A DNA stretch of 64,000 bases from Calothrix membranacea FACHB-236 (GTDB lineage Bacteria > Cyanobacteriota > Cyanobacteriia > Cyanobacteriales > Nostocaceae). Positions 22,360 to 53,358 of the stretch are shown one piece after another; positions within the stretch are counted from its first letter, which is position 1; every line of letters starts with the position of its first letter. The notes below the pieces were generated by a model that saw only the letters and a list, made by a program, of their open reading frames with translations, ran no database searches and had not been told where the DNA came from. The position numbers were made by a program, and so were the translations under genes. The stretch spans positions 1 to 64,000 of the forward strand of contig NZ_JACJPX010000019.1 of assembly GCF_014696315.1 (NCBI RefSeq), given 5' to 3'.

Positions 22360-23688
22360 TCAGCTATGCTCCACACAAGGGGAAAGGACTTTTTCCCCCT
22401 GCTCCCTGCTCCCTTGCCCCCTGCCTCTTCCGGTCAACCGATAAAGTATCTCACCAGCTTTTGGTACAAGTAAAATGCCTTCATCTTCGCGGTTCGCCCA
22501 TTCTTTAGGTTCAATGGTAGCTGGATCGCGATAGTTCAAGTTATGAGCAGCGCAACGTTCTGGGGAAATACCAGTGGCTAGAGTTACCCGAATCCGCGCT
22601 TGTTCTCCTTTAATTGCATCGAAAGTACCCATACCTTTTAAGTGAGTACTATGGGCTAATACTCCACCGGGATAATGTTGAAATTTATCCCATTGTTTCA
22701 GGAAATAATCTCGCACATGGTAGCCAATTTGGGCAAGAATTTCGCCATGTGTATAGCTAAATTCTGTAATATGCGGCGCATAGATAATTACCTCACCACC
22801 ATCAGCGACAACTGGCTCTAATTTGTACATTCCTTTAGCTGCTGTCCAAATGTCATCATACATTTTAGGCATCACGGAAAGCACTTGTTTAAAAGGCTGA
22901 TCTACATATTTAATATGCAATTTTGCTGATAATTTCGCCGCAGCTTCCCAAGCTGGTTCTGGTTTATCTATATAAAGTCCCGCTAACTGATTTGTTCCCG
23001 GTGAAACTACCATCGCCAAACAAAGTTTAGGAGTCGTAATTAGGCTAGCAGCGAGGTTAATTAAGCGCCTGACAGGTGTAATTCCTGGCGTACCGATAAT
23101 TTCATAACAAGTAATTAAAGCCCCTAACCAGTGTGATAAATCAATTACTTCTTGCCCACCAATCCCAGGAAAAAAATATTTATTCCCGCCAGAAAATCCT
23201 ACAACTTCGTGGGGAAATACTGGGCCACAAATCATTATTAAATCATACTCAGTTACCAGCTTGTTAACACGTACTTCTACTTCTTGATGCAGCATTCCAT
23301 TGCTAATTTCTGCTATTTCCGCAGATGGAATTACCCCACAAGAAATGAAAGTATCTGGTAGATGCCAAAGGTGGTTAAAAATCTGCACTTTTTTAAAAGT
23401 TGTTTCGCGTTCCTGCGGTGTCACACCAACCAAGCGATTGATTTGTTCTTCACTCATGGGATTATGTGTACCCAGAGCAATCAAATAATCTAAAGCAGCC
23501 ACCCGCTTACCCAACTCCTGATGCAGCAAGCGAAACATTTGGGGAATTGGTGCAGTACGAGTTCCATCAGGAATTAATACTAGGATGCGCTTTCCATCCA
23601 ATTGAGGATTTGCTAAAGCCGCATGAACTAATTCGGAAACTTGCTCATCTGCAAGTGTCCCGTGAGTTACGTCTAATGAATACATCAT
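22360..23688 (-). CDS. larA-like: LarA-family nickel-dependent racemase/epimerase; proposed D-mannonate/D-gluconate 2-epimerase
   Basis: 442 residues of the lactate racemase (LarA) family, whose members invert the alpha-hydroxy carbon of hydroxy acids with a nickel-pincer nucleotide. The catalytic set is visible: DGTR (Asp41, Arg44), GTHNPMSEE (His75), and His160, Lys170 and His186 in GPVFPHEVVGFSGGNKYFF...LSH. Their spacing (10, then 16) is exactly that of the Ni ligands and cofactor-attachment Lys of Lactobacillus LarA. The family is known to include gluconate 2-epimerases. Its neighbours are an UxuB-like SDR, glucuronate isomerase and gluconokinase, so interconverting mannonate and gluconate is the best-fitting role (inference). 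Cofactor genes larB/C/E are not in the window. The last ~18 residues are encoded by G-rich repeat DNA. Confidence 0.8.
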   Translation of the reverse strand: MMYSLDVTHGTLADEQVSELVHAALANPQLDGKRILVLIPDGTRTAPIPQMFRLLHQELGKRVAALDYLIALGTHNPMSEEQINRLVGVTPQERETTFKKVQIFNHLWHLPDTFISCGVIPSAEIAEISNGMLHQEVEVRVNKLVTEYDLIMICGPVFPHEVVGFSGGNKYFFPGIGGQEVIDLSHWLGALITCYEIIGTPGITPVRRLINLAASLITTPKLCLAMVVSPGTNQLAGLYIDKPEPAWEAAAKLSAKLHIKYVDQPFKQVLSVMPKMYDDIWTAAKGMYKLEPVVADGGEVIIYAPHITEFSYTHGEILAQIGYHVRDYFLKQWDKFQHYPGGVLAHSTHLKGMGTFDAIKGEQARIRVTLATGISPERCAAHNLNYRDPATIEPKEWANREDEGILLVPKAGEILYRLTGRGRGQGSREQGEKVLSPCVEHS

Positions 23689-23790
23689 ACAATTTTGGAT
23701 TTTAAATTTTGGATTTTGGATTGCGTTCTGTCAATCCATCTGTTGCAATTATTTTTTGAATTGATATGATTCAAAATTCAAAATTAATCC

Positions 23791-23866
23791 CAATTTGAAA
23801 AAAGAATGCGACAGATTGTAGGGGCAAGGCACTGCCTTGCCCTCTAGAATATTATTGATGTGTCGC
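23791..23866 (-). repeat. R1 palindromic repeat copy
   Basis: Reverse copy of the R1 family: TGCGACAGATTGTAGGGGCA, palindrome GGCAAGGCACTGCCTTGCC, then TCTAGAATATTATTGATGTG. It lies between the larA-like gene and the SDR gene, followed by an R2-type palindrome (23922-23945). Confidence 0.75.
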
Positions 23867-23945
23867 AAACATTATTTGATTTTCCATAAGAGACGCGATA
23901 AATCAAAAAGACGCGAATTAAAGACGCGATGAATCGCGTCTCTAC

Positions 23946-24782
23946 TTAAACGCCGCTGTAGATGCTAAAACCACCGTCTATAGGTACAACTACGCCGTTG
24001 ATGAAACTAGAACCAGCGCTGCATAACCAAATCACCGTGCTGAGTAATTCTTCTGGTTCACCAAAACGTCCGGCTGGGGTATGTTCAATAATTTTTTGTC
24101 CGCGATCGCTTAAACTGCCATCAGGATTTAACAGTAAATCTCGATTTTGTTCCCCAATAAAGAAACCAGGTGCGATCGCATTCACTCGCAATCCGGCTCC
24201 ATATTTTTGTGCGAGTTCTACCGCTAGCCAGCGCGTAAAGTTATCTATCCCCGCTTTAGCCGCTGAGTAACCCACCACCCGACTAATTACACGGATAGCA
24301 GACATCGAAGAAATATTAACGATACAACCCCGAGGTTGATTTTTTTCTACCATTGCTTCACCAAAAACTTGGCTAGGTAATAAAGTCCCCACCAAATTCA
24401 GACTTACCACCTGCTCAAAAGCTGCGTGTGGCATATCAAAGAAAGTAGCATCAGGTGTAATTGTGGCAGCCGGGACATTACCACCAGCCCCATTGATTAA
24501 AATATCTATTTGCCCCCAACGCTGTAAAATCGCATCCCTAGCGATTTCTAATTGCGTGCGATCGCTCACATCTGCCAGCACCGCCACACTTTCCCCACCA
24601 TGAGCGATAATATCCTTAACTACCGCCTCTGCCCTGACTTCATTACGCCCCAAAACCGCCACCCGCGCCCCAGCCAAACCCAAACCCCGTGCGATCGCAC
24701 CACCCAACACACCCGATCCACCTGTAATTACTGCTACCTGGTCTTGCAGGCTAAAAAGCTTATCCAATATTAAATTTGGCAT
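23946..24782 (-). CDS. SDR oxidoreductase, probable D-mannonate oxidoreductase (fructuronate reductase, UxuB-type SDR)
   Basis: 278 residues, a classical short-chain dehydrogenase. Cofactor motif TGGSGVLGGAIA near residue 20, INGAGGN near 97, Ser158/159 in NISSMSA, and catalytic Tyr172/Lys176 in GYSAAKAG. The INGAGGN...FFDM insertion and the C-terminal RFGEPEELLSTVIWLCS...FINGVVVPIDGGFSIYSGV resemble the SDR-type D-mannonate oxidoreductases of Gram-positive bacteria rather than generic SDRs. It would reduce D-fructuronate to D-mannonate with NAD(P)H. It lies between uxaC and the larA-like gene on the same strand, presumably one operon under the LacI regulator. A gluconate 5-dehydrogenase is the main alternative. 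Confidence 0.8.
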   Translation of the reverse strand: MPNLILDKLFSLQDQVAVITGGSGVLGGAIARGLGLAGARVAVLGRNEVRAEAVVKDIIAHGGESVAVLADVSDRTQLEIARDAILQRWGQIDILINGAGGNVPAATITPDATFFDMPHAAFEQVVSLNLVGTLLPSQVFGEAMVEKNQPRGCIVNISSMSAIRVISRVVGYSAAKAGIDNFTRWLAVELAQKYGAGLRVNAIAPGFFIGEQNRDLLLNPDGSLSDRGQKIIEHTPAGRFGEPEELLSTVIWLCSAGSSFINGVVVPIDGGFSIYSGV

Positions 24783-24960
24783 TGATAATTCCCCTCAAAC
24801 TGTTTTCAAAGCCTTAGATCCCCCCAACCCCCCTTAACAAGGCAATAAGAGTCTTCAAGTCCCCCTTTTTAAGGGGGATTTAGGGGGATCTAGCAATTTA
24901 GAAGCCTAAACAACTAATTTAAAAACACGCCGTAGCCCTATTCTCTCGACTCAGCACTAT
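24783..24960. repeat. Inverted repeat spacer between uxaC and SDR gene
   Basis: AGATCCCCCCAACCCCCCTT and the reverse arm AAGGGGGATTTAGGGGGATC (about 24817-24889) enclose a loop containing another short stem (CCCCCTTTTTAAGGGGG). This is a hairpin type common in cyanobacterial spacers and lies inside the putative operon. Confidence 0.6.
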
Positions 24961-24990
24961 TGTACAGACGCGATTAATCGCGTCTCTGCA
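24961..24990. repeat. R2 palindromic repeat overlapping the uxaC stop
   Basis: TGTACAGACGCGATTAATCG then CGTCTCTGCA. The reverse strand of its centre supplies the last codons and TAA of uxaC, evidence of insertion into or next to the gene's 3' end. Confidence 0.7.
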
Positions 24991-26404
24991 ATTTATAAGC
25001 ATCCTTCGCGAGGTCATAAGCTACAGCCACAGCCATGTCATAGCCTTCCTCCTCCTCAATTAACCCCCGTACTACCAACCCCGCTAACCAATTACAAGCT
25101 ACACGCCGCCAAACAGCGTGACGGGCGGGAATAGAAACGAAAGCGCGTGTATCATCGTTAAACCCAGCAGTATTGTAAAGTCCCGCAGTTTCCATTACCT
25201 GATTGAAGTAGCGCTCCATACCATTAACGCTATCGTGAAACCACCAGGGCGGCCCAAGCAATACAGCCGGATAATGCCCAGCTAGCGGCGCTAACTCACG
25301 GCTATATGTGCTTTCATCCAAACCAAACAAAATTAAATGGAAGTCTTGATTATTACCATAAGCATTCAGCAACGGACGCAGATTTTGCGTCCACTCGATT
25401 TGTAAAGGTATATCTGCACCTTTATCAGATCCAAAGCGCTCAAACATAGCCGAGTTATGGTTACGCATGATACCACAATGCATCTGCATCACTAAGCCAT
25501 CTTCCACACTCATCCGCGCCATTTCCATGAACATATGACCAGTAAACTGCTCTGCATCACTGGGATTGAGCTTGTTATTTAACGCCCTAGCAAAGATAGC
25601 TTCCGCCTCTTCGTCAGAAAGGCGCGTGGTATAAGGTGTAGCAGCGCTGTGGTCAGTAGCTGTTGCACCCATCTTTTTAAAGAAAGCCCGACGTTCTTCT
25701 AAAGCTTGGATAAAAGCAGCGTAGGTACTAATTTCCCTACCTACAGCCCTTTCTAACTGAGCAAGATTTTCCCGCCATCCGATAACGTCTAAGTTGACAA
25801 CTGCATCTGGTCGAAAAGTCGGTTTAATTTGGGTAAAATCCTCTTCGTGCAAGGATTGATGGTGTTCTAGATTATCGCTAGCTGCATCGGTGGTACAAAG
25901 TACTTCTATATTGAAGCGTTTAAATAAAGCACGGGGTGAAAATTCCGGTAAAGCTAACTGCTTTTCTAGATAATCGTAGATATTGCCAGCATTGCGCGAA
26001 TTTAAAGGCTCATCCACACCAAAGACGTTGATTAGTTCATCTTTCAGCCACAAACCAGAGGGTGTACCGCGAAATAGATAAAAATGGTCTGCAAATATCT
26101 GCCAAATTTTGCGATGGTCAGTTTCTATCGGTGTACCATCTTTGGTAGGTATGCCGAGTGCTTCTAAAGGTATGCCCCGACTATAAAGCATTCGGAAAAT
26201 GTAATGGTCAGGAATGATCAATAATTCCGTTGGCGAACCAAATCGGGCGGCGGGATTCGCTAACAAAGCTGGCTCGACATGACCATGCGGACAGACTAGG
26301 GGTAGATTAGAGATGCTGTCAAAAAATTGACGCGCGATTTGTCGCTGTACTGGTTCTGGAGCAAAACAGCGATCGCTTGATAAACTGCGTTTTTGAGTTA
26401 ACAT
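24974..26404 (-). CDS. uxaC: Glucuronate isomerase
   Basis: 476 residues of the UxaC family (amidohydrolase-like TIM barrel), interconverting D-glucuronate and D-fructuronate. The metal-site LVCPHGHVEP near residue 36 and LCTTDAASD, QMHCGIMRNHNS, FNDDTRAF and FVSIPARHAVWRR match the family along the full length. The last residues LQRRD and the stop are encoded by an R2 repeat copy (24961-24990), so the repeat has set the C-terminus. It is downstream of the lacI-type regulator and upstream of the SDR and larA-like genes, all on one strand. In the proposed pathway it uses glucuronate from myo-inositol oxygenase. Confidence 0.95.
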   Translation of the reverse strand: MLTQKRSLSSDRCFAPEPVQRQIARQFFDSISNLPLVCPHGHVEPALLANPAARFGSPTELLIIPDHYIFRMLYSRGIPLEALGIPTKDGTPIETDHRKIWQIFADHFYLFRGTPSGLWLKDELINVFGVDEPLNSRNAGNIYDYLEKQLALPEFSPRALFKRFNIEVLCTTDAASDNLEHHQSLHEEDFTQIKPTFRPDAVVNLDVIGWRENLAQLERAVGREISTYAAFIQALEERRAFFKKMGATATDHSAATPYTTRLSDEEAEAIFARALNNKLNPSDAEQFTGHMFMEMARMSVEDGLVMQMHCGIMRNHNSAMFERFGSDKGADIPLQIEWTQNLRPLLNAYGNNQDFHLILFGLDESTYSRELAPLAGHYPAVLLGPPWWFHDSVNGMERYFNQVMETAGLYNTAGFNDDTRAFVSIPARHAVWRRVACNWLAGLVVRGLIEEEEGYDMAVAVAYDLAKDAYKLQRRD

Positions 26405-26764
26405 CTTTTTTTAGTAAAGTTTATTTTTGTGATTGGTAATTGGTAATTGGTAATTGGTAATTGGTAATTGGTAATTAAATATCTCTGACATAATCTATGT
26501 TTTAAAGTTTATGTCTGCTGCTTGATTTCAAGAAATTGATATTAGCATTTCTGAGACAGAAGGGTTTCTAATGGATTAGCACAGCAGTGAAAAAATGAAT
26601 ACAACCTAGGGCTTTACTTGTTGAATCAGAGATTGCTTATTTCCGCCGTATTGTATTAGGATTTTTCAATCACCCATTACTCATTACTCATTACTCATTA
26701 CTCATTACTCATTACTCATTACTCATTACCCATTACCCATTACCCATTACCCATTACCCATTAC
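26405..26764. repeat. Spacer with two blocks of 7-bp tandem repeats
   Basis: GGTAATT heptamers (about 26431-26476) and CATTACT/CATTACC heptamers (about 26671-26763) flank a middle part that may hold a promoter for uxaC. I saw no TGCACACGTGTGCA operator here. The repeats run into the 3' end of the lacI-type gene. Confidence 0.75.
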
Positions 26765-27787
26765 CTATTTCCTCACCGTACTTCCTCGCTCAATTAAATA
26801 AGGAGATAAAACGCGATTTTCTACAGTTTTATCCTGCAATAAATCAAGTAACATTTGCATAGCAGCGCGACCAATTTCTAACATTGGCTGGCGAATTGTT
26901 GTTAATGGTGGAGTAATATAACCGCCTAAAGCAATACCATCAAATCCTACTAAACTTAAATCTTGAGGTACAGAAATACCTAATTTTGTACAAGCTAAGA
27001 GCGCACCAACTGCTACCATGTCGTTGTAACAAAAAATTCCTGTTACGCCAGCTTTAACTAACTGAGGTAGCATTTGTTGTCCGGTGACAACATCGCTGGT
27101 TCTGGTATTATCTTCTTCTCTAATTGCTATCCAATCTTCTATCTGTGGTAGATTAGCCTCACTCAGAACCGTTTGATAACCTTCTAGGCGTAACTGATTT
27201 GATAAACTGCGATCGCCTACACCCAAGTAACCTATAGAAGTGTGTCCTAAACTGACTAAATGCTCTACAGCTAATCTAGCGCCTAAAAAATCATCTATTG
27301 TAACTGAGTGAAAGATTTCTGGTTTGTCTTCGGTTTGGCTATTAATAAAAACTGTGGGTGCAGCTATTAGCCCTATTTGCTTGGTATGGTATTTACTAAT
27401 TCGGGAATCGGCTACTAAAATACCGTCTACTCTCCGACGATAAAAGTTATTAATAGCTGCTATTTCTTGCTCAACATTTCGGTGGGAAGTACTTAACAAC
27501 ACACTCAAATCTGAGGATCTAGCTATCTGTTCTATTCCTTCTACTACCTCCGCAAAAAAGGGATCTGCGATTGAAGTTACTACTACCCCAATGGTATTAG
27601 TTCGTTGAGTTTGTAAACTTTGAGCAATCCCATTGGGAACATAACCCATTTCCCGCGCTAGTAGTTTAATTTCTTCTCGCACTTTGGGGCTAATTAAGGG
27701 ACTATCTCGCAAAGCACGTGAAACCGTGGTATGCGAAACACCTGCTTTCCGAGCAATATCTTCTATGGAGATTTTTCTTTTGCTCAT
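26765..27787 (-). CDS. LacI-family transcriptional regulator of the sugar-acid/inositol genes
   Basis: 340 residues. N-terminal helix-turn-helix ISIEDIARKAGVSHTTVSRA with hinge RDSPLISPKVREEIKLLARE, then a periplasmic-binding-protein-like effector domain (GVVVTSIADPFFAEVVEGIE ... GIFCYNDMVAVGALLA ... VGFDGI). LacI proteins bind palindromes with a central CpG, and TGCACACGTGTGCA lies 21 bp upstream of the start codon, shared with the divergent gluconokinase. The same palindrome occurs twice before myo-inositol oxygenase at 53.4 kb, so the regulator probably controls both loci (inference). The effector may be a pathway sugar acid or inositol. Confidence 0.9.
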   Translation of the reverse strand: MSKRKISIEDIARKAGVSHTTVSRALRDSPLISPKVREEIKLLAREMGYVPNGIAQSLQTQRTNTIGVVVTSIADPFFAEVVEGIEQIARSSDLSVLLSTSHRNVEQEIAAINNFYRRRVDGILVADSRISKYHTKQIGLIAAPTVFINSQTEDKPEIFHSVTIDDFLGARLAVEHLVSLGHTSIGYLGVGDRSLSNQLRLEGYQTVLSEANLPQIEDWIAIREEDNTRTSDVVTGQQMLPQLVKAGVTGIFCYNDMVAVGALLACTKLGISVPQDLSLVGFDGIALGGYITPPLTTIRQPMLEIGRAAMQMLLDLLQDKTVENRVLSPYLIERGSTVRK

Positions 27788-27807
27788 TTATTACCTTACT
27801 ACACTTT

Positions 27808-27823
27808 ATGCACACGTGTGCAT
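27808..27823. promoter_or_regulatory. Probable LacI-type operator (ATGCACACGTGTGCAT)
   Basis: A perfect 16-bp palindrome with central CpG, between the divergent lacI-type gene (start 27787) and gluconokinase gene (start 27863). Its 14-bp core recurs only at 53409-53422 and 53443-53456 as far as I can see. Confidence 0.8.
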
Positions 27824-27862
27824 GATAATATTAATTATTAGGAAAATTGAGATATTTGTCAA

Positions 27863-28348
27863 ATGATTATTCTGGTAATGGGTGTTTCTGGCTCTGGTAA
27901 GACTACCATCGGAAAACTGCTAGCCGACTCTTTACACTGGACATTTAGCGACGCTGACAGTTTCCACTCATCAGAAAATGTAGAGAAAATGCGGAGTGGT
28001 ATCCCCTTAACGGAAGCTGACAGAACACCTTGGTTGCAAAATTTGCAAACAGCTATTAAAAATTGGCTACAAGAAAATCAAAATGTAGTCCTAGCGTGTT
28101 CAGCCTTAAAAGACAGCTATCGCCAATTTTTGTTAGTGGATAGCAACCTCATCAAAATAGTCTACCTCAAAGGGTCTTACGAGTTAATCCAAAAGCGCTT
28201 GCAAGAACGCCAGAATCACTACATGAGTGCAACCCTATTGGATAGCCAGTTTCATACTCTGGAAGAGCCATTAGACACTATATATATGGATATTGCAGAG
28301 ACACCACAAGTAATTGTGCAAAATATTAGAACAGCTTTGGGAATTTAG
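27863..28348 (+). CDS. gntK: Gluconokinase
   Basis: 161 residues, the size of GntK-type gluconokinases, which make 6-phosphogluconate from D-gluconate and ATP. The P-loop GVSGSGKT is at residues 7-14. Family signatures DADSFHSSENVEKM, CSALKDSYR and MSATLLDSQFHTLEEP are all present. It is divergent from the LacI-type regulator and shares its operator. In the proposed pathway it phosphorylates gluconate made by the LarA homologue and feeds the oxidative pentose phosphate pathway. Confidence 0.92.
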   Translation: MIILVMGVSGSGKTTIGKLLADSLHWTFSDADSFHSSENVEKMRSGIPLTEADRTPWLQNLQTAIKNWLQENQNVVLACSALKDSYRQFLLVDSNLIKIVYLKGSYELIQKRLQERQNHYMSATLLDSQFHTLEEPLDTIYMDIAETPQVIVQNIRTALGI

Positions 28349-28513: not shown

Positions 28514-28540
28514 TGAAATTTTTAATTATAAATGAGCCAT

Positions 28541-35103: not shown

Positions 35104-35105
35104 AT

Positions 35106-42816: not shown

Positions 42817-42819
42817 AAG

Positions 42820-42955
42820 GGTGAAAGATGAAGGGTGAAGGGTGAAAGGTGAAAGGTGAAGGGTGAAAGGTGAAGGGTGAAGGGTGAAGGGTGAAAGGTG
42901 AAGGGTGAAAGGTGAAGGGTGAAGGGTAAAGGGTGAAGGGTGAAGGGTGAGTTTC
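42820..42955. repeat. 7-bp tandem repeat array (GGTGAAG/GGTGAAA)
   Basis: About 19 head-to-tail GGTGAAR heptamers directly upstream of the fecE-like start codon. The heptamer period keeps all frames open over long runs, which explains the spurious long ORFs here. Confidence 0.9.
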
Positions 42956-43270: not shown

Positions 43271-43366
43271 AAAGCCTCACCAAATATCATAAGTTCACAA
43301 CACAATTTCTCCTCCTTGTCCCCTTGTCCCCTTGTCCCCAGTCCCCAGTCCCCAGTCCCCAGTCCC

Positions 43367-44616: not shown

Positions 44617-46233
44617 CTAAAAATCAAACGTTGTCCGCAACACCCCAACATATTGGGTATTATTGCTGCTATTGTTCTCTGGATTGAGAACTACCCAAAA
44701 GCCAGGAGTAACGGAGATATTATCATTGAGCCGCATACGATAAAAGGCTTCGATGTGGTAAGCATGGTCACTTTCTTGACGAACATCGCTGCTGGTAACG
44801 TGGGGTGGGATACCAAACAATATTCCTGGGAGATTACCTCTACCGCCGAAATCAGGGAAGGATACGCCAATTGCGCCAAACCAAGCATTAGCATTAGCGC
44901 CATTGTTAACTAATAATGTATCTCTGCCACCCCTACCATCAGGGATATTACTCAAACCAGAATTTTCCGCACTAGCCCAGATATACCCACCCCAAGCATG
45001 AACCTGGAAGTTTTGCGAAAAGCGATAGAATCCTTGTGCGCCTACTATATTGTTAGACGTTGCAATGGTATCTCCAAAAGGAGAAATTGCTAGGTTACTA
45101 CCTGCTCCACCTGTAAGATTAACTTGTCCCCCAGGACTATAGCCATGAGAATAGGCAATCCCAATCGAACCTTGTTTGCCGTTGAAAACCAAGTGTGCTA
45201 AAGCATTGTAACCGCCATTAAATATGCCATTGCCTGATGATGGATTTTCGGGAGAACCTGCAAGATAGCCTAAAGTCAAAATTACATCTGGGGTGATAAA
45301 CCAATTAACTGCTGCACCACCACCACCCCGCCGGAATAACGGACTATATTGTCCAAACAGTGAAGGAACGCCGTTACCGTCATCTGCAATTACAGCGGGG
45401 GTCACGGTTGATGTAATATCAGTGTAGCCAATACCTACAGGCCCCACTACAAAGGCAAGAGCATCGCTGACGGGGAAGTAGTAACGGATATGAGGAATAG
45501 ATAGATTATTGTTGCTGTTGGTGTCAAAGTTCAACCGCGTCATACCAGTACCCGTGACGGAGGCTATCTGACTGGTATTATTAGAATTTAAGAAGTTGCC
45601 AAACTCCAGCCGGACTCGCAACAAGTCTTTGCCTGTAAAGCTGCTTTCTAAATTCAGACGACCGCGATCGCTAAAGTAGGTGTTGGATTGATCTCTATCT
45701 CCGCCTACACTGTTACCAAAGGTATCGCTAACAGCAGTAATAATTTGAGCATTTAATCTAGTAGTGGTGGAAAACTGTTGCGCCTCTAATGTTGCTTCCC
45801 GCGCCTCTAATACATCCACTCGCCCACGCAGAGTTGCTAATTCCGCGGAAAACTCTTGTTGTAAATTTTGCAACACTGCTAAGTCTTCTTTTCTGACTAA
45901 ATCAGTAGTCGCAGTTGCGATTAATTCATTAATTCTGGTCAAGCAAGCATTTAAACCAGCTGCAAACTCATAACGGGTAAGGGCACGGTTGCCGCGATAA
46001 GTTGCGTCAGGATAACCTGCAATACAGCCGTAGCGTTCAACTAATGATTGTAATGCTTGAAATGCCCAATCGGTAGGGTTGATATCTGAAAGTTGAGACA
46101 CAGAGGTTACTTGGTCTTGCAAGGTGCCAAAGTTAACATCTGCGTTAGGAAAGCGATCGTTTGCAGGTATTGCCCAGGCTGCGGGGCAGATAAAGAATAA
46201 TAGGGGAAAAGTGCATAATAAATTTTTTAGCAT
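44617..46233 (-). CDS. OprB-family outer-membrane porin with SLH domain
   Basis: 538 residues. Signal peptide (LLCTFPLLFFICPAAWA), SLH domain (about 48-100; DWAFQALQSLVERYGCIAGY, YEFAAGLNACLTRI), a coiled-coil spacer (LRGRVDVLEAREATLEAQQ) and a beta-barrel ending in an aromatic (TTFDF). Such porins of cyanobacteria pass sugars, ions or iron. It is downstream of the CUT2 sugar ABC transporter genes on the same strand (426 bp gap), so a role in inositol or sugar entry across the outer membrane is plausible. Confidence 0.9.
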   Translation of the reverse strand: MLKNLLCTFPLLFFICPAAWAIPANDRFPNADVNFGTLQDQVTSVSQLSDINPTDWAFQALQSLVERYGCIAGYPDATYRGNRALTRYEFAAGLNACLTRINELIATATTDLVRKEDLAVLQNLQQEFSAELATLRGRVDVLEAREATLEAQQFSTTTRLNAQIITAVSDTFGNSVGGDRDQSNTYFSDRGRLNLESSFTGKDLLRVRLEFGNFLNSNNTSQIASVTGTGMTRLNFDTNSNNNLSIPHIRYYFPVSDALAFVVGPVGIGYTDITSTVTPAVIADDGNGVPSLFGQYSPLFRRGGGGAAVNWFITPDVILTLGYLAGSPENPSSGNGIFNGGYNALAHLVFNGKQGSIGIAYSHGYSPGGQVNLTGGAGSNLAISPFGDTIATSNNIVGAQGFYRFSQNFQVHAWGGYIWASAENSGLSNIPDGRGGRDTLLVNNGANANAWFGAIGVSFPDFGGRGNLPGILFGIPPHVTSSDVRQESDHAYHIEAFYRMRLNDNISVTPGFWVVLNPENNSSNNTQYVGVLRTTFDF

Positions 46234-46659
46234 GGTTTTAAAAAGGATATATGCAATAGTTGGTAATTGGTAATTCGTAGTTCGTAATTCGTAATTCGTA
46301 ATTCAAGCTAACTCAGCAATTATTATTAGTGGCACAACAATGTTGTGCCCTTAATTTATGGTTAAATCGCGTTAATTTTGAGGAGTAAAAAACGAACTGC
46401 GTTCGCGTAGCGTCTCGCAGAGAAGGCACGTTCGGCGTAGAGATGTAGGTTGGGTTAAGCGCAGCGCAACCCAACATGAATATTTAAAGCTTAATCGATA
46501 TTTTGGTGTTGGGTTTCCTTACGTCAACCCAACCTACTAATCTGGTCGTAAATTCTTCCTTCGCATCTTTGCGGTTCGTTCCTCAACCTATCTGCACACT
46601 AGCGAGAATGAAACAAACAAATTACGAATTACGAATTACGAATTACGAATTAGTAATTA
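46234..46659. other. Spacer with STRRs and hairpins
   Basis: No gene. GTAATTC heptamers (about 46262-46305), a GGTTGGGTTAAGCGCAGCGC hairpin (about 46447-46476) and AATTACG heptamers (about 46619-46652) between the porin and permease genes. Confidence 0.6.
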
Positions 46660-47658
46660 TTACCGTTTGGTTCTTCTGCGGAGTCGGTCAATCATTACTG
46701 CCACAATAATTACTAAACCTTTAACAACAAGTTGCCAAAAGTAAGACATATTCAACAATGTTAAACCATTGTTGAGAACGGCAATAATTAATGCACCGAG
46801 AAGGGTTCCGCCAATAGTACCAATACCACCTGTAAAGCTAGTACCGCCTAAAATTACAGCCGCGATCGCATCTAGTTCGTAACCTTGTCCTAATAAGCCG
46901 GTGGCGCTGTAAAGGCGGCTGGCGCTCATGATTCCGGCTAAACCTGCTAATAATCCACTTACGCCATAAACAAATAGTAAGACGCGATTGACTTTAATCC
47001 CAGTGAGTCTTGCGGCTCTTTCGTTACCACCTACTGCGTAAATTTGCACACCTAATACTGTTTGCCGCAGAATAAACCAACTAGCTGCTACAGTTAGTAA
47101 GGCAATGATTACTAGCCAGGGAATGGGGCCTAAATAGCTATTACCTACCCAAGCAAAATTTAGGTCGGGGTTAATTACAGTTGTACCATTAGCTACTAAA
47201 TAAGCAGCACCACGTAAGGCTGTGAGTGAACCCAAGGTGACAATAAATGGCGGTACATCCAAAAAGGTGATTAGCGCACCGTTGACTAAGCCTAAAAGCA
47301 ATCCTGTTAATAATGCCGCAGGTACAGCCGCCCAACCTAAAGCCGGCAGTAGCGATACCAAGACCGCAACGACGGCAGAAACAGCCAAGATGGAACCAAC
47401 AGAAAGGTCAATACCACCTGTAAGAATGACAAAGGTCATGCCTGTTGCCAGCACAATGTTAATTGATGCTTGGCGCAAGATATTAACAGCGTTACCAGCT
47501 GTGCCAAAGTTGGGAGTGAGAAGCGCAAATAAGATACAGATGAGTATCAGAATGGGCAGAATACCTGCTACCTGGAGAAAGTTGTTAATTGATTGCCGCT
47601 GGCGAGATTTAGCCTGGCTTTCAGGTCGATTTTGGGTAGGTCTTAAAGTTTGACTCAT
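46660..47658 (-). CDS. CUT2 ABC transporter permease (RbsC/IatP-like)
   Basis: 332 residues, about ten membrane helices. [40 protein letters not shown] and the late [20 protein letters not shown] are RbsC-family signatures. The ATG overlaps the ATPase stop by 4 bp (ATGA), so translation is coupled. Sugar specificity of this family is broad (ribose, xylose, galactose, myo-inositol); myo-inositol is favoured here because of the upstream myo-inositol oxygenase. Confidence 0.92.
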
Positions 47659-49205
47659 GATGCTAGTACCTCTGCTGCTCCTGTGGCATAGTGCATAATG
47701 TTTTCTTGGGAGATTTCCTTACCTGGGCTACCGTCAAGTTCACCAACTAACTGCCCTTCGCGCATCACTAAAACGCGATCGCTCATTCCCACAACCTCGG
47801 GTAATTCGCTGGAAACCATTAAAATGGCAATACCTTGGGCTGCAAGTTCGCTCATAATCCGGTAGATTTCGCTTTTGGCACCAATATCTACACCGCGTGT
47901 CGGTTCATCCAACATCAACACTTTGGGTTTAATGGCTAGCCAACGCGCTAGTAAAAGTTTTTGCTGGTTTCCACCGGAAAGATCCACGGCGCGAATTTCT
48001 AAATTCGCGAGTCGGATTTGAAAGTTTTCGACTGCATCTGTGGCAATTTTATTTACTGAACCCCAGTTAACAATGCCAGCGTTAGCATCCTGTCTGAGGC
48101 GATTCAGGGCAATATTTTTGCGGGAACTCATTTCTAAAAATAAACCCTGGTCTTTGCGGTCTTCGGGAACGTAACCAATTCCCGCAGTAATAGCATCACT
48201 AGGGTTATTAATTTCGAGTTTTTTGCCATCGAGGAAGACTTCACCACTGGCTTTGCGGTCAGCGCCAAAAATTAGCCGGGATACTTCTGTGCGTCCCGCA
48301 CCAACTAGCCCAGCTAAACCAACAATTTCGCCAGCATGAATTTGTAAACTAGCGGGTTTAACCTTGCGTCCATCGCTGATATTTCTCACATCCAGCACCA
48401 CCGGGCCGACATTGGCTTGGCGTTGATGTTCGTAAAAATCCTGCATGGGACGACCAACCATCATCTGCACCAAGCGCTGGGGAGAAATTTCCTCCCGTGT
48501 GAGTGTGCCAATATATTGACCATCGCGTAGTACACTAATGCGGTCAGCCAAGGCATAGATTTCTTCCATGCGGTGGCTAATATAAATAATGGCAATGCCA
48601 TCATTGCGGAGTTTGCGAACCACCTCAAATAAACGTTCCGTCTCGCGGTCTGATAGGGCGGCTGTGGGTTCATCCATCACCAAAACGCGGCTGTTATCTT
48701 TTAGCGCCCTGGCAATTTCTACCTGTTGTTGTTCCGCAATTGAGAGCGTACCAACTATAGTATTAGGTGCAAAACTAGCGCCCAAACTTTGCAGTACTTG
48801 GGTTGCTTCCCGTTCCATACCTTGGCGGTCTAAAAACTGACCTTTTTGCAACTCGCTACCCATAAAAATATTTTCGGTAACGGTTAAATTGGGTGCAACA
48901 TTCAGTTCTTGATAAATCAGATTAATCCCCGCCTGTCGTGCTGTCCCGGGATTAGTAATTTTTATTGTTTGACCATTGATGCGAATCTCTCCTTCATCGG
49001 CTATATAAGCCCCAGCCAGGATTTTCATCAATGTACTTTTCCCTGCACCGTTCTCCCCCATCAGGGCGTGAACTTCTCCCGGATAAATTGTGAGATTAAC
49101 ATTTTGGAGAGCAGGTACACCATGAAATCGTTTTGTTATTCCTTGCATTTCCAACACCGGGGTGGTGGTTGGTGCATTGGGTATTCGTTGGAAATCGGTT
49201 GTCAT
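47655..49205 (-). CDS. CUT2 ABC transporter ATPase (RbsA/IatA-like)
   Basis: About 516 residues with two nucleotide-binding domains, as in RbsA. The first has Walker [10 protein letters not shown], signature LSIAEQQ and DEPTAALS; the second has degenerate Walker [10 protein letters not shown] and signature [30 protein letters not shown] 49205 ([12 protein letters not shown]) is chosen; the open frame continues upstream only through GGGGATT tandem repeats. Operon: binding proteins 1 and 2, then this gene, then permease. Confidence 0.92.
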
Positions 49206-49354
49206 AAGTTGTTTGGGGGATTGGGGATTGGGGATTGGGGATTGGGGACTGGGGATTGGGGATTGGTGACTGGGGATTGGGGATTGGTGACTGGGGATAA
49301 ATAACTTTTGACTTTTGACTTTTGACTCAGCACTCAGCACTCAGCACTGCTGAT
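49206..49354. repeat. GGGGATT tandem repeats between binding protein 2 and ATPase
   Basis: About ten GGGGATT/GGGGACT/GGTGACT heptamers inside the operon, then TTTGACTTTTGACTT. They look like an STRR expansion in a gap and may affect translation or transcript length. Confidence 0.75.
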
Positions 49355-50347
49355 TTACCACCCTGGAAAGCTGCTGACATTGTCTTGAGTAATCAACTTC
49401 ACCGGAATCAGGATATTAGGATTGCTGGGTTTTTTACCGTGTAAAATGTCATTGCCAACTTGAACAGCTTTTTGCGTCATTCCTCTGGGGTTTTGGGTGG
49501 CTGTTGCTGCATAGAGACTTTTTTTAGATGCGATCGCATTAATTGCTTCTGGCGCACCATCAACTCCCACGATGAAAAATTCTTTGCGTTTGGCTTGGTT
49601 TGCTGCTAAATCTACACCTACGCCACTGGGGTCGTTAATGGCAAAGACTGCATCTATTTTGGGGAAGGTAACTAGTAAATCGCCCATGACTCTCAATCCC
49701 CCATCTCTGCTTCCTTCGGCGTTCTGGTTTTTCGAGAGGATTTTAATATTGGGATATTTGGCTAAGGTATTTTCACAACCATTGACTCGCTGAATTACTG
49801 AGTTAACTGGCGGGCCATTAACAATGACGACATTACCTTTACCTTTGAGGCGATCGGCAATATATTGACAAGCAACTTCTCCAGCTTGCAAATTATTGGT
49901 GGTAACTGTGGCATCAACTTGAGCATCAACGGCTGTATCTACCGCAATTACAACTGTACCTGCTTGTCTGGCTTTATCGACTGCAGGTCTAATACCTTTA
50001 CTATCAGCCGCATTCAAGATAATTAAGTCAGTATTTGCAGCCACGAAATTTTCAATTTGGTTAAATTGCTGGTTGAGGTCATAGCCGCTAGAAACCACAG
50101 TCACTCTGACATCATTACCGCCAATTTTTTTGGCTTCGCTTTCAGCACCTTTACCCATCAGCACGAAGAACGGGTTACTTAAATCGCCAACGGTAACACC
50201 TACGGCTTTTAATTTTCCCTGATGATTGCCGTTAGCATCTATGGCATTTGTGCTATTCCGAGAGACATTAGGACTAATACAGCCACCAAGGGTTGTGCTA
50301 ACGATACCTAATATACTGGCTACTATTGCAATCCTGTTTACGTTCAT
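49355..50347 (-). CDS. CUT2 sugar-binding lipoprotein 2 (RbsB/IbpA-like)
   Basis: 330 residues, lipoprotein signal with lipobox Cys at about residue 23 (TTLGGC). Periplasmic-binding-protein type I fold: GVTVGDLSNPFFVLMGKGAE, VVSSGYDLNQQFNQIENFVA, AIDAVFAIND and FFIVGVDGAPEAINAI. It is a close paralogue of the gene just upstream: large blocks such as AKYPNIKILSK and NQNAEGSRDGGLRVM are nearly identical. Its adjacent copy may recognise another isomer or be under different control. Confidence 0.9.
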   Translation of the reverse strand: MNVNRIAIVASILGIVSTTLGGCISPNVSRNSTNAIDANGNHQGKLKAVGVTVGDLSNPFFVLMGKGAESEAKKIGGNDVRVTVVSSGYDLNQQFNQIENFVAANTDLIILNAADSKGIRPAVDKARQAGTVVIAVDTAVDAQVDATVTTNNLQAGEVACQYIADRLKGKGNVVIVNGPPVNSVIQRVNGCENTLAKYPNIKILSKNQNAEGSRDGGLRVMGDLLVTFPKIDAVFAINDPSGVGVDLAANQAKRKEFFIVGVDGAPEAINAIASKKSLYAATATQNPRGMTQKAVQVGNDILHGKKPSNPNILIPVKLITQDNVSSFPGW

Positions 50348-50603
50348 TTAAACTCCTCATAAAATTCAACTTAGCTCCTAAACCCTTCCCCTTGTCCCCC
50401 AATACGGTTGGTTAAAAATTTTTCGTCATAATTTGGGTGTGGGAAAGACGCGGTAATTTTGGTGTTGGGGAGACGCGATAATTTTGGTGTGGGAAAGACG
50501 CGATAATTTTGGTGTTGTGGAGAGACGCGATCAATCGCGTCTCTACAAGATTTAAATGTCAATCGATGTTGTCTCATCCCCCTCATCTCCCTCATCTCCC
50601 TCA
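50348..50603. repeat. Spacer with tandem AGACGCG...AATTTTGGTGT units
   Basis: Between the two binding-protein genes: about three imperfect copies of a 30-bp unit (AAGACGCGATAATTTTGGTG) ending in an R2-type palindrome (50521-50547), then CTCATCTCC repeats. No gene. Confidence 0.7.
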
Positions 50604-51587
50604 TCACCATCCTTGGTAACTGCTAATGTTCTCTTGCGTTACCAGCTTGACTGGAATCAAAATATTGGGATTACTCGGTCTTTTGCCCTGTAGAATGTCG
50701 TTACCAACATCAACAGCCTTTGCAGCCATCCCGACTGGATCTTGAGCCGCAGTTGCCGCAAATAAGCTATCTTTGGTTGTCATGGCTTTAACTGCATCTG
50801 GGCCACCGTCAACCCCAACGATAAAAAATTCTTTGCGCCTAGCTTGTCTCGCTGCTAAGTCTGCGCCTACGCCACTTTGATCGTTGGTGGCGAAAACTGC
50901 ATCTATTTTGGGGAAGGTTGTCAGCAAATCGCTCATGACTCGTAATCCTCCGTCCCGGCTTCCTTCGGCGTTTTGGTCTTTGGAAAGGATTTTGATATTA
51001 GGATATTTCGCTAATGCCTTTTGGCAGCCATTCACGCGCTGAATGACTGAATCCATCGGTATACTGTTGAGGATGACGACGTTACCTTTACCTTGTAAGC
51101 GATCGCCAATATATTCACAAGCAATTTCTCCAGCTTGCAGATTATTGGAGCTAATTGTGGCATCTACCTCTGTATCCACAGCCGCATCCACAGCGATGAC
51201 TGTCTTTCCGGCTCGTCTGGCATGATCAATTGCAGGTTTAATCCCTTTATTATCTACCGCGCTGAGAATAATTAAGTCAGCATCAGCAGCCACGAAATTT
51301 TCAATTTGGTTAAATTGCTGATTTAAATCAAAGCCGCTGGAAACTATACTCAATTTCAGATCGTTACCAGCAATTTTTCTAGCTTGGGACTCAGAACCCT
51401 TAGCCATAGCTACAAAGAAGGGATTTCCCAAATCACCAAGACTAACACCAAGCGATCGCAATTGGGAATTTTGCTCGCCCTGATTTTCTGCGATCGCGTT
51501 TGTGCTGTAGCGCGAGACGTTGGTACAAGCTGCCAAAGTACTGCTGATCAGGCTGATGATACTAGCTGCGGTCGCAATTTTCCTCAT
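50604..51587 (-). CDS. CUT2 sugar-binding lipoprotein 1 (RbsB/IbpA-like)
   Basis: 327 residues with lipobox Cys (STLAAC) near residue 21. Same fold and motifs as its downstream paralogue: GVSLGDLGNPFFVAMAKGSE, DLNQQFNQIENFVAADADLI, FPKIDAVFATNDQSGVGAD. First gene of the transporter operon. A 15-bp palindrome (51624-51638) lies 37 bp upstream of the start codon. Myo-inositol or a related cyclitol is the favoured ligand (inference from the linked oxygenase and regulon). Confidence 0.9.
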   Translation of the reverse strand: MRKIATAASIISLISSTLAACTNVSRYSTNAIAENQGEQNSQLRSLGVSLGDLGNPFFVAMAKGSESQARKIAGNDLKLSIVSSGFDLNQQFNQIENFVAADADLIILSAVDNKGIKPAIDHARRAGKTVIAVDAAVDTEVDATISSNNLQAGEIACEYIGDRLQGKGNVVILNSIPMDSVIQRVNGCQKALAKYPNIKILSKDQNAEGSRDGGLRVMSDLLTTFPKIDAVFATNDQSGVGADLAARQARRKEFFIVGVDGGPDAVKAMTTKDSLFAATAAQDPVGMAAKAVDVGNDILQGKRPSNPNILIPVKLVTQENISSYQGW

Positions 51588-52464
51588 AATTCATCTATCC
51601 AAATATGGATTTCAACCTATATCTGCAATGTCATTGCAATTTGAACTAGATCTGAAAACTTCAGACCTAATTGAGTGGCGCTGCTAGCTTCTAGCTGCTC
51701 GATTGCTGTCAAATCTCTAATCTATTCATAGTGATTTGAGCTATTACTATTAACGCTACTCCTACTAATTCCGAAAAATTTGTCACCAGATTTTAAGCTA
51801 TAAGCTCAGAGCAAATCTGAATGCTTAAATTCTGAATTAGCATTAATGCTTGTTTTGAATTTTAAAAATCGCTGGCTGCAATACATCAAAATTTTACATT
51901 AGAGTTTTGTAAAAGCTGTTTGAATGTACTGGTATAAATTACTTTTTCTTTGGTTAATCTTGCTTGTAGCGGCAGGCACTTTTTATCTAAAACTACTTTT
52001 TCTAAAGTTGTAAAACTCTAGCGTTTTCCTATCTCTAGAGAAGTATTTCTGAGAAATTAGCCGCTTTTAGCTCATATCCAAATTTAACCAAATTCACTGC
52101 TATTTCTGAAAATCAATTCATAAAATTTAACACTCTCCAGGAACTAATATTTAATGTCAAATTTCAGATATTTCAGAGTAAGCCATTGTGAATTTTTATG
52201 GCAATCCAGCAAACCATCTGTTACCCATAAAACGTATAACAGCACCATACCTGAAAATTCTTGGACATTATTTTTAAATCTGCCTCAAATATGCTATTTT
52301 TAATAACTATTTTTGAGATTATTCTTGACGTGACATATTACAAAACGGTATTATTTTCATCTATCTAACGTCAGAATCTAGTGTGAAAAACTCAATTTTT
52401 CTCTGATTGCTACATGGGTATAGAGGAGATTTACAAAATCTTGAGCTTGGCAATCAACCTATGC
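51588..52464. other. 877-bp promoter region between transporter operon and MIOX gene
   Basis: No gene. AT-rich, with the TGCAATGTCATTGCA palindrome at 51624-51638. The rest has no repeats. The MIOX gene ends just beyond (stop at 52465), so this spacer probably carries the transporter promoter. Confidence 0.55.
51624..51638. promoter_or_regulatory. Palindrome upstream of the transporter operon
   Basis: TGCAATG-T-CATTGCA, perfect 7-bp arms around one base, 37 bp before the start of binding protein 1. It shares the TGCA ends of the LacI-type operator but not its CACGTG centre, so it could be a diverged site or that of another regulator. Confidence 0.4.
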
Positions 52465-53358
52465 TTAAAATTTTAAAGTAGCAGGTAAATACTTAGCCAC
52501 TAAATCTTCATAATATGGTCTGAGTTCTTGCCAATTTGGAGGATTGGGATTTTTGGAATACAAATCATAAGGATTGAATAATTTTACCCACTTGAACATT
52601 TCGCGATCGCGCTGATTCATTAAATGTTCGTAAGCGTTTTCTCGATGTTGTGGATAAAAGGAGTGATAACGCAAAATGTATAAAGCGGTTTCAGGTAAAT
52701 AGGGTTTCATCATGTGATAGAAATATTCATCATGACCCCATGACATCTGGACATTACTCAGTCCACAATTCGGCTTGTAAATTCCATATTTGGTGTTATA
52801 TTTCGGGTTATTGTAATCAGGATTATCTTGAAAAAATTCCGCGAAGACAATTTTATTGGAGAATGCACAACCCACAGGGTAAGTATCGCCTACAGTCGCC
52901 CATTGTGGTTCGCCAAATAAACACAGCACCTTCCCCATATCGTGAAAGAAGCCAGTTAGTACCATCCAATCAGGATGTCCATCAGCACGAATAGCTTCTG
53001 ATGTTTGTAATAAATGTTGTAACTGATCTAAATCTGTATCTGGATCAGAATCATCAACTAATTGGTTTAAAAATTCTACCGCATCCCAAACCGTCATTTC
53101 TCGCTGATTAAACTGCAAAAACTCTGCCTTTTTCTGAAGCACAAAGTCGTAGGTTTGGTTAACATGATTTAACCGATAAAACTCTTTAACTGAATCTCTA
53201 GTAGTTGTTTCATAATTTCTGTATTCTGCAGTAGTTTTACCTGCTTGAACTATGCTTTCTGGATCGGGATAGCGATTCAGTACATCCTCTTCCCATTCTT
53301 CTAAGGAATGTAAGGGATTATTTTCAGCTTGGTTAATAGTATTGAGAGTATAAGACAT
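52465..53358 (-). CDS. Myo-inositol oxygenase (MIOX)
   Basis: 297 residues, similar in size to the animal and plant enzymes (about 285-320). It oxidises myo-inositol with O2 to D-glucuronate using a mixed-valence di-iron centre. All six expected metal ligands are visible at matching spacing: His115 (LDQLQHLLQTSE), His139-Asp140 (FFHDMGKV, with Lys143), His209 (MSWGHDEY), His232 (RYHSFYP) and Asp265 (FNPYDLYSK). GEPQWATVGDTYPVGC and NCGLSNVQMSW are also family hallmarks. Two LacI-type operators lie 48-98 bp upstream. The enzyme is rare in bacteria. Its product is the substrate of the glucuronate isomerase at 25 kb. Confidence 0.95.
   Translation of the reverse strand: MSYTLNTINQAENNPLHSLEEWEEDVLNRYPDPESIVQAGKTTAEYRNYETTTRDSVKEFYRLNHVNQTYDFVLQKKAEFLQFNQREMTVWDAVEFLNQLVDDSDPDTDLDQLQHLLQTSEAIRADGHPDWMVLTGFFHDMGKVLCLFGEPQWATVGDTYPVGCAFSNKIVFAEFFQDNPDYNNPKYNTKYGIYKPNCGLSNVQMSWGHDEYFYHMMKPYLPETALYILRYHSFYPQHRENAYEHLMNQRDREMFKWVKLFNPYDLYSKNPNPPNWQELRPYYEDLVAKYLPATLKF

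What the first reader, a model, noticed from the sequence alone, without database searches (positions are those of the whole stretch)
22360..53358. Candidate undescribed route: myo-inositol to 6-phosphogluconate via a nickel-pincer epimerase
Enzymes seen: myo-inositol oxygenase (all di-iron ligands), glucuronate isomerase, SDR resembling D-mannonate oxidoreductase, LarA-family protein with intact Ni-pincer residues (His160, Lys170, His186), gluconokinase. Established knowledge: LarA-family members include D-gluconate 2-epimerases, i.e. gluconate/mannonate interconversion. No mannonate dehydratase (UxuA), KDG kinase or KDPG aldolase gene is in the cluster. Inference: mannonate is epimerised to gluconate and phosphorylated, entering the oxidative pentose phosphate pathway instead of the UxuA-KdgK-KdgA branch.
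Basis: partly seen in the sequence, partly recalled or inferred. Interest (0 to 1): 0.95.

Follow-up and report, generated by a model that had tools for sequence, protein, structure and literature searches.

The report
Symbiosis gene HrmA, probable nickel-pincer epimerase
The cluster is the hormogonium-regulating (hrm) locus of Nostoc-type cyanobacteria, and its unexplained gene hrmA looks like a nickel-dependent enzyme that completes a route from myo-inositol to 6-phosphogluconate, which would turn a plant-controlled developmental switch into a testable question of metabolism.

Summary
The genes are all there and intact. The proposed route (inositol, glucuronate, fructuronate, mannonate, gluconate, 6-phosphogluconate) is well supported by comparison; no enzyme has been assayed. 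The LarA-like protein is closest, in sequence and fold, to GntE2 (4NAR), a proven D-mannonate/D-gluconate 2-epimerase. In Nostoc its gene abuts the mannonate-forming SDR gene (23 of 23 loci measured); in other phyla it often lies near that SDR or 6-phosphogluconate dehydrogenase. A related LarA is fused to gluconokinase in Saccharobesus. The genome has larB, larC, larE and gnd, and no uxuA match. A 14-bp palindrome with three exact copies in 8.81 Mb stands between lacI and gntK and twice before the inositol oxygenase gene.

One paper names five of its six genes and calls hrmA unknown; another says hrmA lacks homologues. By position hrmA is this LarA-family gene. The mannonate-to-gluconate branch was proposed for Thermotoga in 2012 and its enzyme shown in 2020. 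New here: a function for HrmA, the closed inositol-fed route, the operator. Against it: six related genomes keep inositol oxygenase without LarA.

The parts
22360..23688 (-). LarA-family protein, 442 aa; HrmA by position; proposed nickel-pincer D-mannonate/D-gluconate 2-epimerase
   Evidence: 4NAR (GntE2) 222.7 bits against 38.2 for the best lactate racemase; Foldseek 4nar rank 1, TM 0.82/0.86; NF052594 194.6 bits, under its cut-off of 500
23946..24782 (-). SDR, D-mannonate oxidoreductase type (HrmU): fructuronate to mannonate
   Evidence: PRK08277 387.1 bits, cut-off 281
24974..26404 (-). glucuronate isomerase UxaC (HrmI)
   Evidence: NF002794 511.8 bits, cut-off 387; 2q01 463.3 bits
26765..27787 (-). 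LacI-family regulator (HrmR)
   Evidence: LacI and Peripla_BP_3 domains
27809..27822 (.). operator palindrome TGCACACGTGTGCA between lacI and gntK
   Evidence: a site of this kind in 21 of 22 Nostoc lacI/gntK gaps
27863..28348 (+). gluconokinase GntK (HrmK)
   Evidence: TIGR01313 162.6 bits, cut-off 113.75; 1knq gluconate kinase E 2e-31
44617..46233 (-). OprB-type porin with SLH domain
   Evidence: conserved beside the transporter in several relatives
46660..47658 (-). CUT2 sugar ABC permease; stands where PMC5987646 draws the frt fructose transporter
   Evidence: position
47655..49340 (-). CUT2 sugar ABC ATPase
49355..50347 (-). sugar-binding protein 1
   Evidence: Peripla_BP_4
50604..51587 (-). 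sugar-binding protein 2
   Evidence: Peripla_BP_4; 4rwe 342 bits
52465..53358 (-). myo-inositol oxygenase (HrmE)
   Evidence: Pfam MIOX 373.2 bits; 2huo 281.6 bits
53409..53422 (.). operator palindrome upstream of MIOX, copy 1
   Evidence: a site within 400 bp upstream of MIOX in 17 of 18 Nostoc loci
53443..53456 (.). operator palindrome upstream of MIOX, copy 2

Best explanation
The genes form one regulon, the hrm locus, and encode a complete route from myo-inositol to 6-phosphogluconate. MIOX (HrmE) oxidises myo-inositol to D-glucuronate. UxaC (HrmI) isomerises that to D-fructuronate. The SDR (HrmU) reduces it to D-mannonate. The LarA-family protein (HrmA) inverts C2 of D-mannonate to give D-gluconate, with the nickel-pincer cofactor made by LarB, LarE and LarC encoded elsewhere in the genome. 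GntK (HrmK) makes 6-phosphogluconate, which the genome's Gnd passes into the oxidative pentose phosphate pathway. HrmR, a LacI-type repressor, controls lacI (and the genes behind it) and gntK on one side and MIOX on the other through TGCACACGTGTGCA. Shown here: gene content, family membership, the palindromes and their conservation, no UxuA match in the genome, larB/C/E and gnd in it, and the neighbourhoods elsewhere. Inferred: every substrate, binding of HrmR to these sites, the identity of the LarA gene with hrmA (by order), and any effect on hormogonia.
For: (1) Best solved relative 4NAR (GntE2): E 7.3e-65 over residues 31-421, against 7.3e-09 for lactate racemase. The AlphaFold model (mean pLDDT 82) finds 4nar first, TM 0.82/0.86; other LarA structures reach at most 0.72/0.74. 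PMC7583248 reports D-mannonate epimerisation by GntE2 and names its residues (passages); the cofactor-binding and catalytic positions and the loop Glu match in HrmA. (2) By tblastn ends, hrmU stops within -1 to 4 nt of the start of hrmA in 23 of 23 Nostoc loci measured. (3) Of 29 non-Nostoc loci with at least 3.5 kb on each side, 19 have an SDR match, 14 have Gnd and 24 have one or the other within 5 kb. In L062 and L065 a FGGY kinase lies between LarA and Gnd; the one scanned (L065) is nearest to gluconokinase, 236.1 bits, under its cut-off of 648.55. (4) Saccharobesus has GntK fused to a group-18 LarA, then larE, larB, a TauE/SafE protein, a tagaturonate-epimerase-family gene and gnd, with uxaC further on; Catenovulum has uxaC-TRAP-gntK-larA-larC-larE-larB. 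(5) UxuA: 0 of 26 Nostoc-type carriers searched. LarE 27 of 27, Gnd 23 of 23, LarB and LarC in the own genome. (6) Operator: three exact copies in 8.81 Mb, all here; 21 of 22 and 17 of 18 at the two places in Nostoc loci, one other site in 433,433 bases; the exception, L041, has the same altered palindrome at both places. (7) Of 217 Nostocaceae genomes 45 have MIOX and LarA matches, 12 MIOX alone, 1 LarA alone, 159 neither.
Against: No enzyme of this window has been assayed. HrmA scores 194.6 bits against the curated group-18 hexonate-epimerase model, cut-off 500, and is 33% identical to GntE2; three substrate-side positions differ from GntE2 (V162/S156, A284/G286, G342/N348 by the alignment), so a neighbouring hexonate is possible, and the model is weak at 325-346. 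Six Nostocaceae genomes (G315, G573, G578, G674, G684, G715) keep full-length MIOX without any LarA match, several with gntK and the operator. HrmA's two closest non-cyanobacterial relatives (L042, L044) show none of the queried pathway genes beside them, nor do several others. Some outside loci carry a KDG-kinase-like PfkB protein (4 of 29) or, in L091, a GarL/HpaI-like aldolase, and 5 of 20 non-Nostoc carriers have a UxuA-family match, among them L057 and L091 with uxaC-SDR-larA-gnd. Co-occurrence is inflated by linkage and shared descent. In the window-only scan three sites at up to three mismatches is not unusual (37 of 100 shuffles); it is their exactness and places that matter.
Confidence: 0.82

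Rival explanations
1. HrmA is an NPN epimerase of another sugar acid (for example altronate, galactonate or an aldarate), and the locus makes or removes a signal molecule and is not a carbon route, as the hrm literature has proposed.
For: [quoted passage not shown] HrmA lies below the curated group-18 cut-off. Some genomes keep MIOX and gntK without LarA. PMC7583248 itself suspects that GntE1 has another native substrate.
Against: Gluconokinase in the same regulon, Gnd within 5 kb of LarA in 14 of 29 outside loci, the GntK-LarA fusion in a related group, and GntE2 as closest solved relative all point to gluconate as product.
Confidence: 0.13
2. Mannonate leaves through an unrecognised dehydratase and KDG branch elsewhere in the genome, and HrmA works in the other direction or on another pool.
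For: kdgK and KDPG aldolase were not searched for genome-wide; KDG-kinase-like and aldolase genes lie near LarA in some outside loci.
Against: No PF03786 match and no ManD-like protein in the genome; the operator has no exact copy outside this cluster.
Confidence: 0.05

Closest known systems
hrm (hormogonium-regulating) locus of Nostoc, hrmE K R I U A (PMC5987646, PMC8074062; passages)
   Same: Same gene families; the order R-I-U-A is that of the hrmRIUA operon. [quoted passage not shown] Strain 210A of PMC5987646 is locus L095 here, with MIOX to LarA together.
   Different: In the window the MIOX and transporter piece is inverted and about 24 kb from gntK, and 257 bp separate hrmU from hrmA. 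The papers read give HrmA no function; PMC8074062 calls hrmE unknown too.
GntE2 (LarAH20) of Thermotoga maritima, 4NAR, and its hexuronate network
   Same: Closest solved relative; same cofactor-binding and catalytic residues; the same mannonate-gluconate-6-phosphogluconate branch was proposed there.
   Different: 33% identity; no inositol oxygenase in the described network (as cited); Thermotoga also has UxuA (control).
LarAH group 18 (NF052594, 'putative hexonate epimerase')
   Same: Best NCBIfam match; members stand beside uxaC, gntK and gnd, once fused to gntK.
   Different: HrmA 194.6 bits, cut-off 500; about 30% identical to the Catenovulum member.
Lactobacillus suebicus galacturonate route (PMC6978723, passages)
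   Same: Joins the isomerase route at mannonate to 6-phosphogluconate.
   Different: There mannonate is phosphorylated first and then epimerised; the genes were not identified.
Francisella inositol oxygenase operon (PMC3479022, passages)
   Same: MIOX with UxaC and a mannonate oxidoreductase.
   Different: Goes on by UxuA-KdgK-KdgA.

Membership tests
LarA superfamily (NPN-dependent 2-hydroxy acid racemases/epimerases) | Lar_N domain and LarA fold | tested here: met
   Pfam Lar_N 74.1 bits, cut-off 23.3; ranks 1-19 of Foldseek are LarA-family or LarA-like structures
LarA superfamily (NPN-dependent 2-hydroxy acid racemases/epimerases) | cofactor-binding and catalytic residues | tested here: met
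   D41, R44, H75, H160, K170, H186, K285 present; in 82 or 83 of 83 aligned homologues
LarA superfamily (NPN-dependent 2-hydroxy acid racemases/epimerases) | cofactor genes larB, larC, larE in the genome | tested here: met
   LarB 289.4 bits, cut-off 175; LarC 488.2, cut-off 22.1; LarE 333.8, cut-off 150
GntE (D-gluconate 2-epimerase) | signature of groups 18-20: loop E-V/S, Trp in helix 11 (PMC7583248) | tested here: met
   E161-V162 and W281, identical in 83 of 83; the helix-14 position was not judged, the model being weak there
GntE (D-gluconate 2-epimerase) | D-mannonate/D-gluconate epimerisation | not testable with these tools
   needs an enzyme assay
LarAH group 18, NF052594 | score over the curated cut-off | tested here: not met
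   194.6 bits, cut-off 500
hrm locus | genes E, K, R, I, U, A with the order R-I-U-A | tested here: met
   window order lacI-uxaC-SDR-larA with gntK divergent and MIOX under the same palindrome; MIOX, gntK, lacI, uxaC, SDR and larA together in 18 of 25 Nostoc loci
hrm locus | sequence identity with HrmA of Nostoc punctiforme ATCC 29133 | not tested
   that chromosome was not reached by name; the link rests on gene order and on strain 210A (L095)
hrm locus | repression of hormogonia | not testable with these tools
   literature only (PMC5987646, passage)
canonical UxuA-KdgK-KdgA branch | mannonate dehydratase | tested here: not met
   no PF03786 in the own genome; the control rings in E. coli and four others; no ManD-like protein

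The most novel reading that the evidence does not exclude
HrmA is a nickel-pincer mannonate/gluconate epimerase. The plant-induced hrm locus is then a complete drain of inositol and hexuronates into the oxidative pentose phosphate pathway, not a producer of an inhibitor. HrmR senses a uronate of the route, and hormogonium formation is repressed by the flux or by the removal of a sugar acid. A host would set the developmental state of its cyanobacterium by feeding a catabolic operon, and nickel would be a cofactor of that switch.
Probability: 0.42. Interest if true: 0.86.

Novelty: new variant of a known kind. Interest (0 to 1): 0.74.

Why it matters
hrmA is a genetically identified gene of the plant-cyanobacterium symbiosis whose biochemical role the papers seen here leave open (PMC5987646: 'unknown'; [quoted passage not shown] passages). 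A concrete catalytic hypothesis makes the question testable with a standard assay and named metabolites. It also changes how the locus reads: the route is closed, so its end point is central metabolism. And it marks a subfamily of nickel-pincer enzymes, found here in Cyanobacteria, Chloroflexota, Acidobacteriota and other phyla, whose frequent neighbours (mannonate SDR, Gnd) predict its function.

Tried and rejected
Considered and set aside: (a) uxuA, kdgK or another gene under the same operator elsewhere: three exact copies, all in the window, and one 2-mismatch site on C115, whose neighbours I did not work out. (b) ManD-type dehydratase: two MR_MLE hits, judged Ala-Glu epimerase-like and MenC-like by sequence and neighbours, not by a family scan. 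(c) The ABC transporter as an inositol importer: it stands where PMC5987646 draws the fructose transporter frtA1A2BC, so I claim nothing about inositol; best solved relative of one binding protein 4rwe. (d) LarA carriers were first sought in the order (1 of 195) and the phylum (4 of 386), which looked like an isolated transfer; the family set (46 of 217) corrected that. (e) L042 and L044, the closest non-cyanobacterial relatives, gave no useful context. (f) The tree puts the Nostoc clade with Chloroflexota L042/L044; its bootstrap had not settled and 19 of 61 inner branches are open, so it is only a hint of transfer. (g) Greedy ORF calls in GC-rich loci were unreliable and used only to pick proteins to scan. 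(h) In G567 SDR, UxaC, LacI and GntK were not found in the stretches taken; the rest of that genome was not searched for them.

Limits of the counts. L027, L030 and L043 were left out of the operator count (22 of 25 Nostoc loci used). 26 of 55 non-Nostoc loci with under 3.5 kb on a side were left out of the neighbour count, and SDR matches down to 29% identity are counted and may be other SDRs. The 46 LarA matches include broken or partial copies (G282, G569, G637, G654, G683); six of the 57 MIOX matches are fragments or weak (G575, G576, G626, G628, G667, G680). The tree used 64 of 83 rows, the structure 27 sequences. Of the papers, four held hrmA only in their reference lists (PMC12825409, PMC9620832, PMC6426835, PMC11314209); none was read whole; the last search held 106 papers of which 15 were listed.
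Full report
WHAT IS THERE. The window lies in an 8.81-Mb, 164-contig genome, a Nostoc-type cyanobacterium by its relatives. Curated models put UxaC, the SDR and GntK over their cut-offs. MIOX matches its Pfam model at 373.2 bits and aligns with mouse MIOX over residues 37-296. The LarA-like protein carries the Lar_N domain. A LacI-family regulator lies between uxaC and gntK. The span is two pieces: larA-SDR-uxaC-lacI with divergent gntK (22360-28348), and porin, CUT2 ABC transporter and MIOX (44617-53358). Between them lie DnaG, an amidase, an O-methyltransferase, FecCD, FecE and others. In the same-genus genome G568 the two pieces are contiguous (L172). In G572 the same block, DnaG to FecD, lies between gntK and MIOX as in the window, and LarA stands about 23 kb from the SDR. 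So the split is a rearrangement seen in the genus; all genes of the set are intact in the window.

ONE REGULON. A scan of the window for CG-centred palindromes (8 or more of 9 positions) gave five hits: three of the type TGCACACGTGTGCA, one between lacI and gntK and two upstream of MIOX, and two unrelated ones at 37337 and 53663. In the whole genome the 14-mer occurs exactly three times, all here; allowing two mismatches adds one site, on C115. As a caution, three window sites at up to three mismatches are reached by 37 of 100 shuffles, so the point is that all three are exact and where they lie. In 22 Nostoc loci examined, GCANACGTNTGC is in the lacI/gntK gap in 21 of 22 and within 400 bp upstream of MIOX in 17 of 18, with one other site in 433,433 bases. 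The one exception, L041, carries a changed palindrome, the same change at both places in opposite orientation, as expected if one repressor reads both. That HrmR binds these sites is inferred; [quoted passage not shown] uxaC, SDR and larA follow lacI on the same strand and are called the hrmRIUA operon in PMC8074062 (passage).

THE EPIMERASE. Among solved structures the best sequence match is 4NAR, 222.7 bits over residues 31-421; the best lactate racemase gets 38.2 bits. The AlphaFold model (27 sequences, mean pLDDT 82.0, weak at 325-346 and 421-442) finds 4nar first, TM 0.82 and 0.86, 33% identity; other LarA structures reach at most 0.72 and 0.74. PMC7583248 identifies 4NAR as GntE2 of Thermotoga maritima, measures D-mannonate epimerisation and gives its cofactor and catalytic residues (passages). 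By the alignment, H160, E161, K170 and H186 match H154, E155, K164 and H180 of GntE2, and D41, R44, W281 and K285 match D38, R41, W283 and K287; three substrate-side positions differ (V162/S156, A284/G286, G342/N348), V162 being allowed in the published group signature. In 83 aligned sequences H160, E161, V162, K170, H186, W281 and K285 are identical in 83 of 83, and D41, R44 and H75 in 82 of 83. Against the curated group-18 'putative hexonate epimerase' the protein scores 194.6 bits, cut-off 500, so I do not file it there; the Catenovulum and Saccharobesus proteins belong there (620.9 and 618.9 bits). I read HrmA as a separate GntE-like subfamily.

CONTEXT ELSEWHERE. In 18 of the 25 Nostoc loci MIOX, gntK, lacI, uxaC, SDR and larA lie together; the other seven are cut short or lack MIOX in the stretch. 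By tblastn ends the SDR stops within -1 to 4 nt of the larA start in 23 of 23 Nostoc loci measured; in the window the gap is 257 bp. Of 29 outside loci with at least 3.5 kb on each side, 19 have an SDR match within 5 kb, 14 have 6-phosphogluconate dehydrogenase, 24 one or the other, 9 both; UxaC is there in 4, a UxaE-like match in 6, a FGGY kinase in 2, a KDG-kinase-like PfkB protein in 4. In L062 and L065 a FGGY kinase lies between LarA and Gnd; the L065 protein is nearest to gluconokinase at 236.1 bits, cut-off 648.55. On plasmids, Embleya has uxaC, larB, larE, larA and larC close together, Catenovulum has uxaC-TRAP-gntK-larA-larC-larE-larB, and Saccharobesus has one protein that is gluconokinase fused to a group-18 LarA, then larE, larB, a TauE/SafE protein, a tagaturonate-epimerase-family gene and gnd, with uxaC further on. 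Such a fusion is strong evidence, for that group, that kinase and epimerase share gluconate.

GENOME CHECKS ASKED FOR. larB, larC and larE are in the own genome, each over its cut-off and each on another contig. LarE is in 27 of 27 genomes searched and Gnd in 23 of 23. UxuA has no match in the own genome or in any of 26 Nostoc-type carriers; 5 of 20 other carriers have one. Of 217 Nostocaceae genomes MIOX has a match in 57 and LarA in 46; 45 have both, and the one with LarA alone (G642) is 72% complete. Fisher's test gives 4e-34, but the genes are linked and the genomes related, so this is only a description. Against the reading: six genomes keep full-length MIOX without a LarA match. Beside their MIOX, G573 has lacI and an SDR remnant, G674 uxaC fragments with lacI and gntK, G315 and G684 gntK alone, and G715 gntK and lacI; for G578 the stretch holds only MIOX and the transporter. 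The operator stands in all six (L164-L169). G282, with intact MIOX and lacI, has only fragments of uxaC, SDR and larA.

WHAT IT IS CALLED. [quoted passage not shown] Its strain 210A is our L095, which holds MIOX to LarA together. [quoted passage not shown] The window has R-I-U-A in that order, so the LarA-like protein is HrmA by position. The HrmA sequence of Nostoc punctiforme itself was not available to me. I recall, from no call, that a transposon insertion in hrmA changed the response to the hornwort host in the 1997 work. That paper I did not look up; the 2003 HrmR paper, the 2002 review, the 2013 sugar-transporter paper and the 2012 Thermotoga paper are not held, and I know them only through citing passages.

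WHAT IS NEW. The branch mannonate - gluconate - 6-phosphogluconate was proposed for Thermotoga in 2012 (as cited in PMC7583248 and PMC6978723). GntE enzymes were shown in 2020 and 2024 (PMC7583248, PMC11770544; passages). Francisella has MIOX with the canonical UxuA branch (PMC3479022, passages). [quoted passage not shown] I found no paper that assigns HrmA to the LarA family or closes the route; the searches were made, in an open-access library only, so this is weak evidence of absence. If HrmA is the epimerase, nothing in the locus is a dead end: it runs from inositol to central metabolism. How that represses hormogonia stays open. Either the flux itself matters, in keeping with repression by soluble sugars (PMC10575698, passage), or the route removes a sugar acid that HrmR or another sensor reads.

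Noticed in passing
L175:16688 and 16899-17981; L029:3066 and 1655-2725: In G571 (L175) and in L029 (a contig of the same length as that of G570, L178) a further exact operator stands before a fatty-acid-desaturase-family gene (PF00487) not far from gntK, a possible extra regulon member.
   Followed up: partly
L041:5746 and 6473: Nostoc sp. S13 has the palindrome changed in its centre (CACAGGTGTG / CACACCTGTG) at both hrm sites, which suggests that repressor and operators changed together; its HrmR N-terminus shows only small differences from its relatives.
   Followed up: partly
L013:7521-9290 (Saccharobesus litoralis plasmid): Gluconokinase fused to a group-18 LarA, both halves over their curated cut-offs; the record calls it only a gluconokinase.
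   Followed up: yes
L015, L164, L166-L169: The hrm locus decays piecewise in some Nostocaceae genomes: uxaC, SDR and larA are lost or fragmentary near MIOX while MIOX and the transporter stay.
   Followed up: partly
genome G000:C132, C99, C77: larC, larB and larE lie on three contigs other than that of larA, and LarC is also over its cut-off in the control Synechococcus elongatus, so cyanobacteria may have another user of the nickel-pincer cofactor.
   Followed up: no
window 42040-43377: The FecE-like ATPase ORF has an N-terminal extension of about 185 residues that reads through a short-unit repeat; similar repeat-like tails seem to occur at the end of the larA ORF and the start of the RbsA-like ORF.
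   Followed up: no
window 53663 (AGTACCCTCGAGGGTACT): A second, unrelated perfect 18-bp palindrome about 300 bp upstream of MIOX.
   Followed up: no
G000:C115:12771-12784: The only other near-match (two mismatches) to the operator in the genome; its neighbours were not worked out.
   Followed up: no
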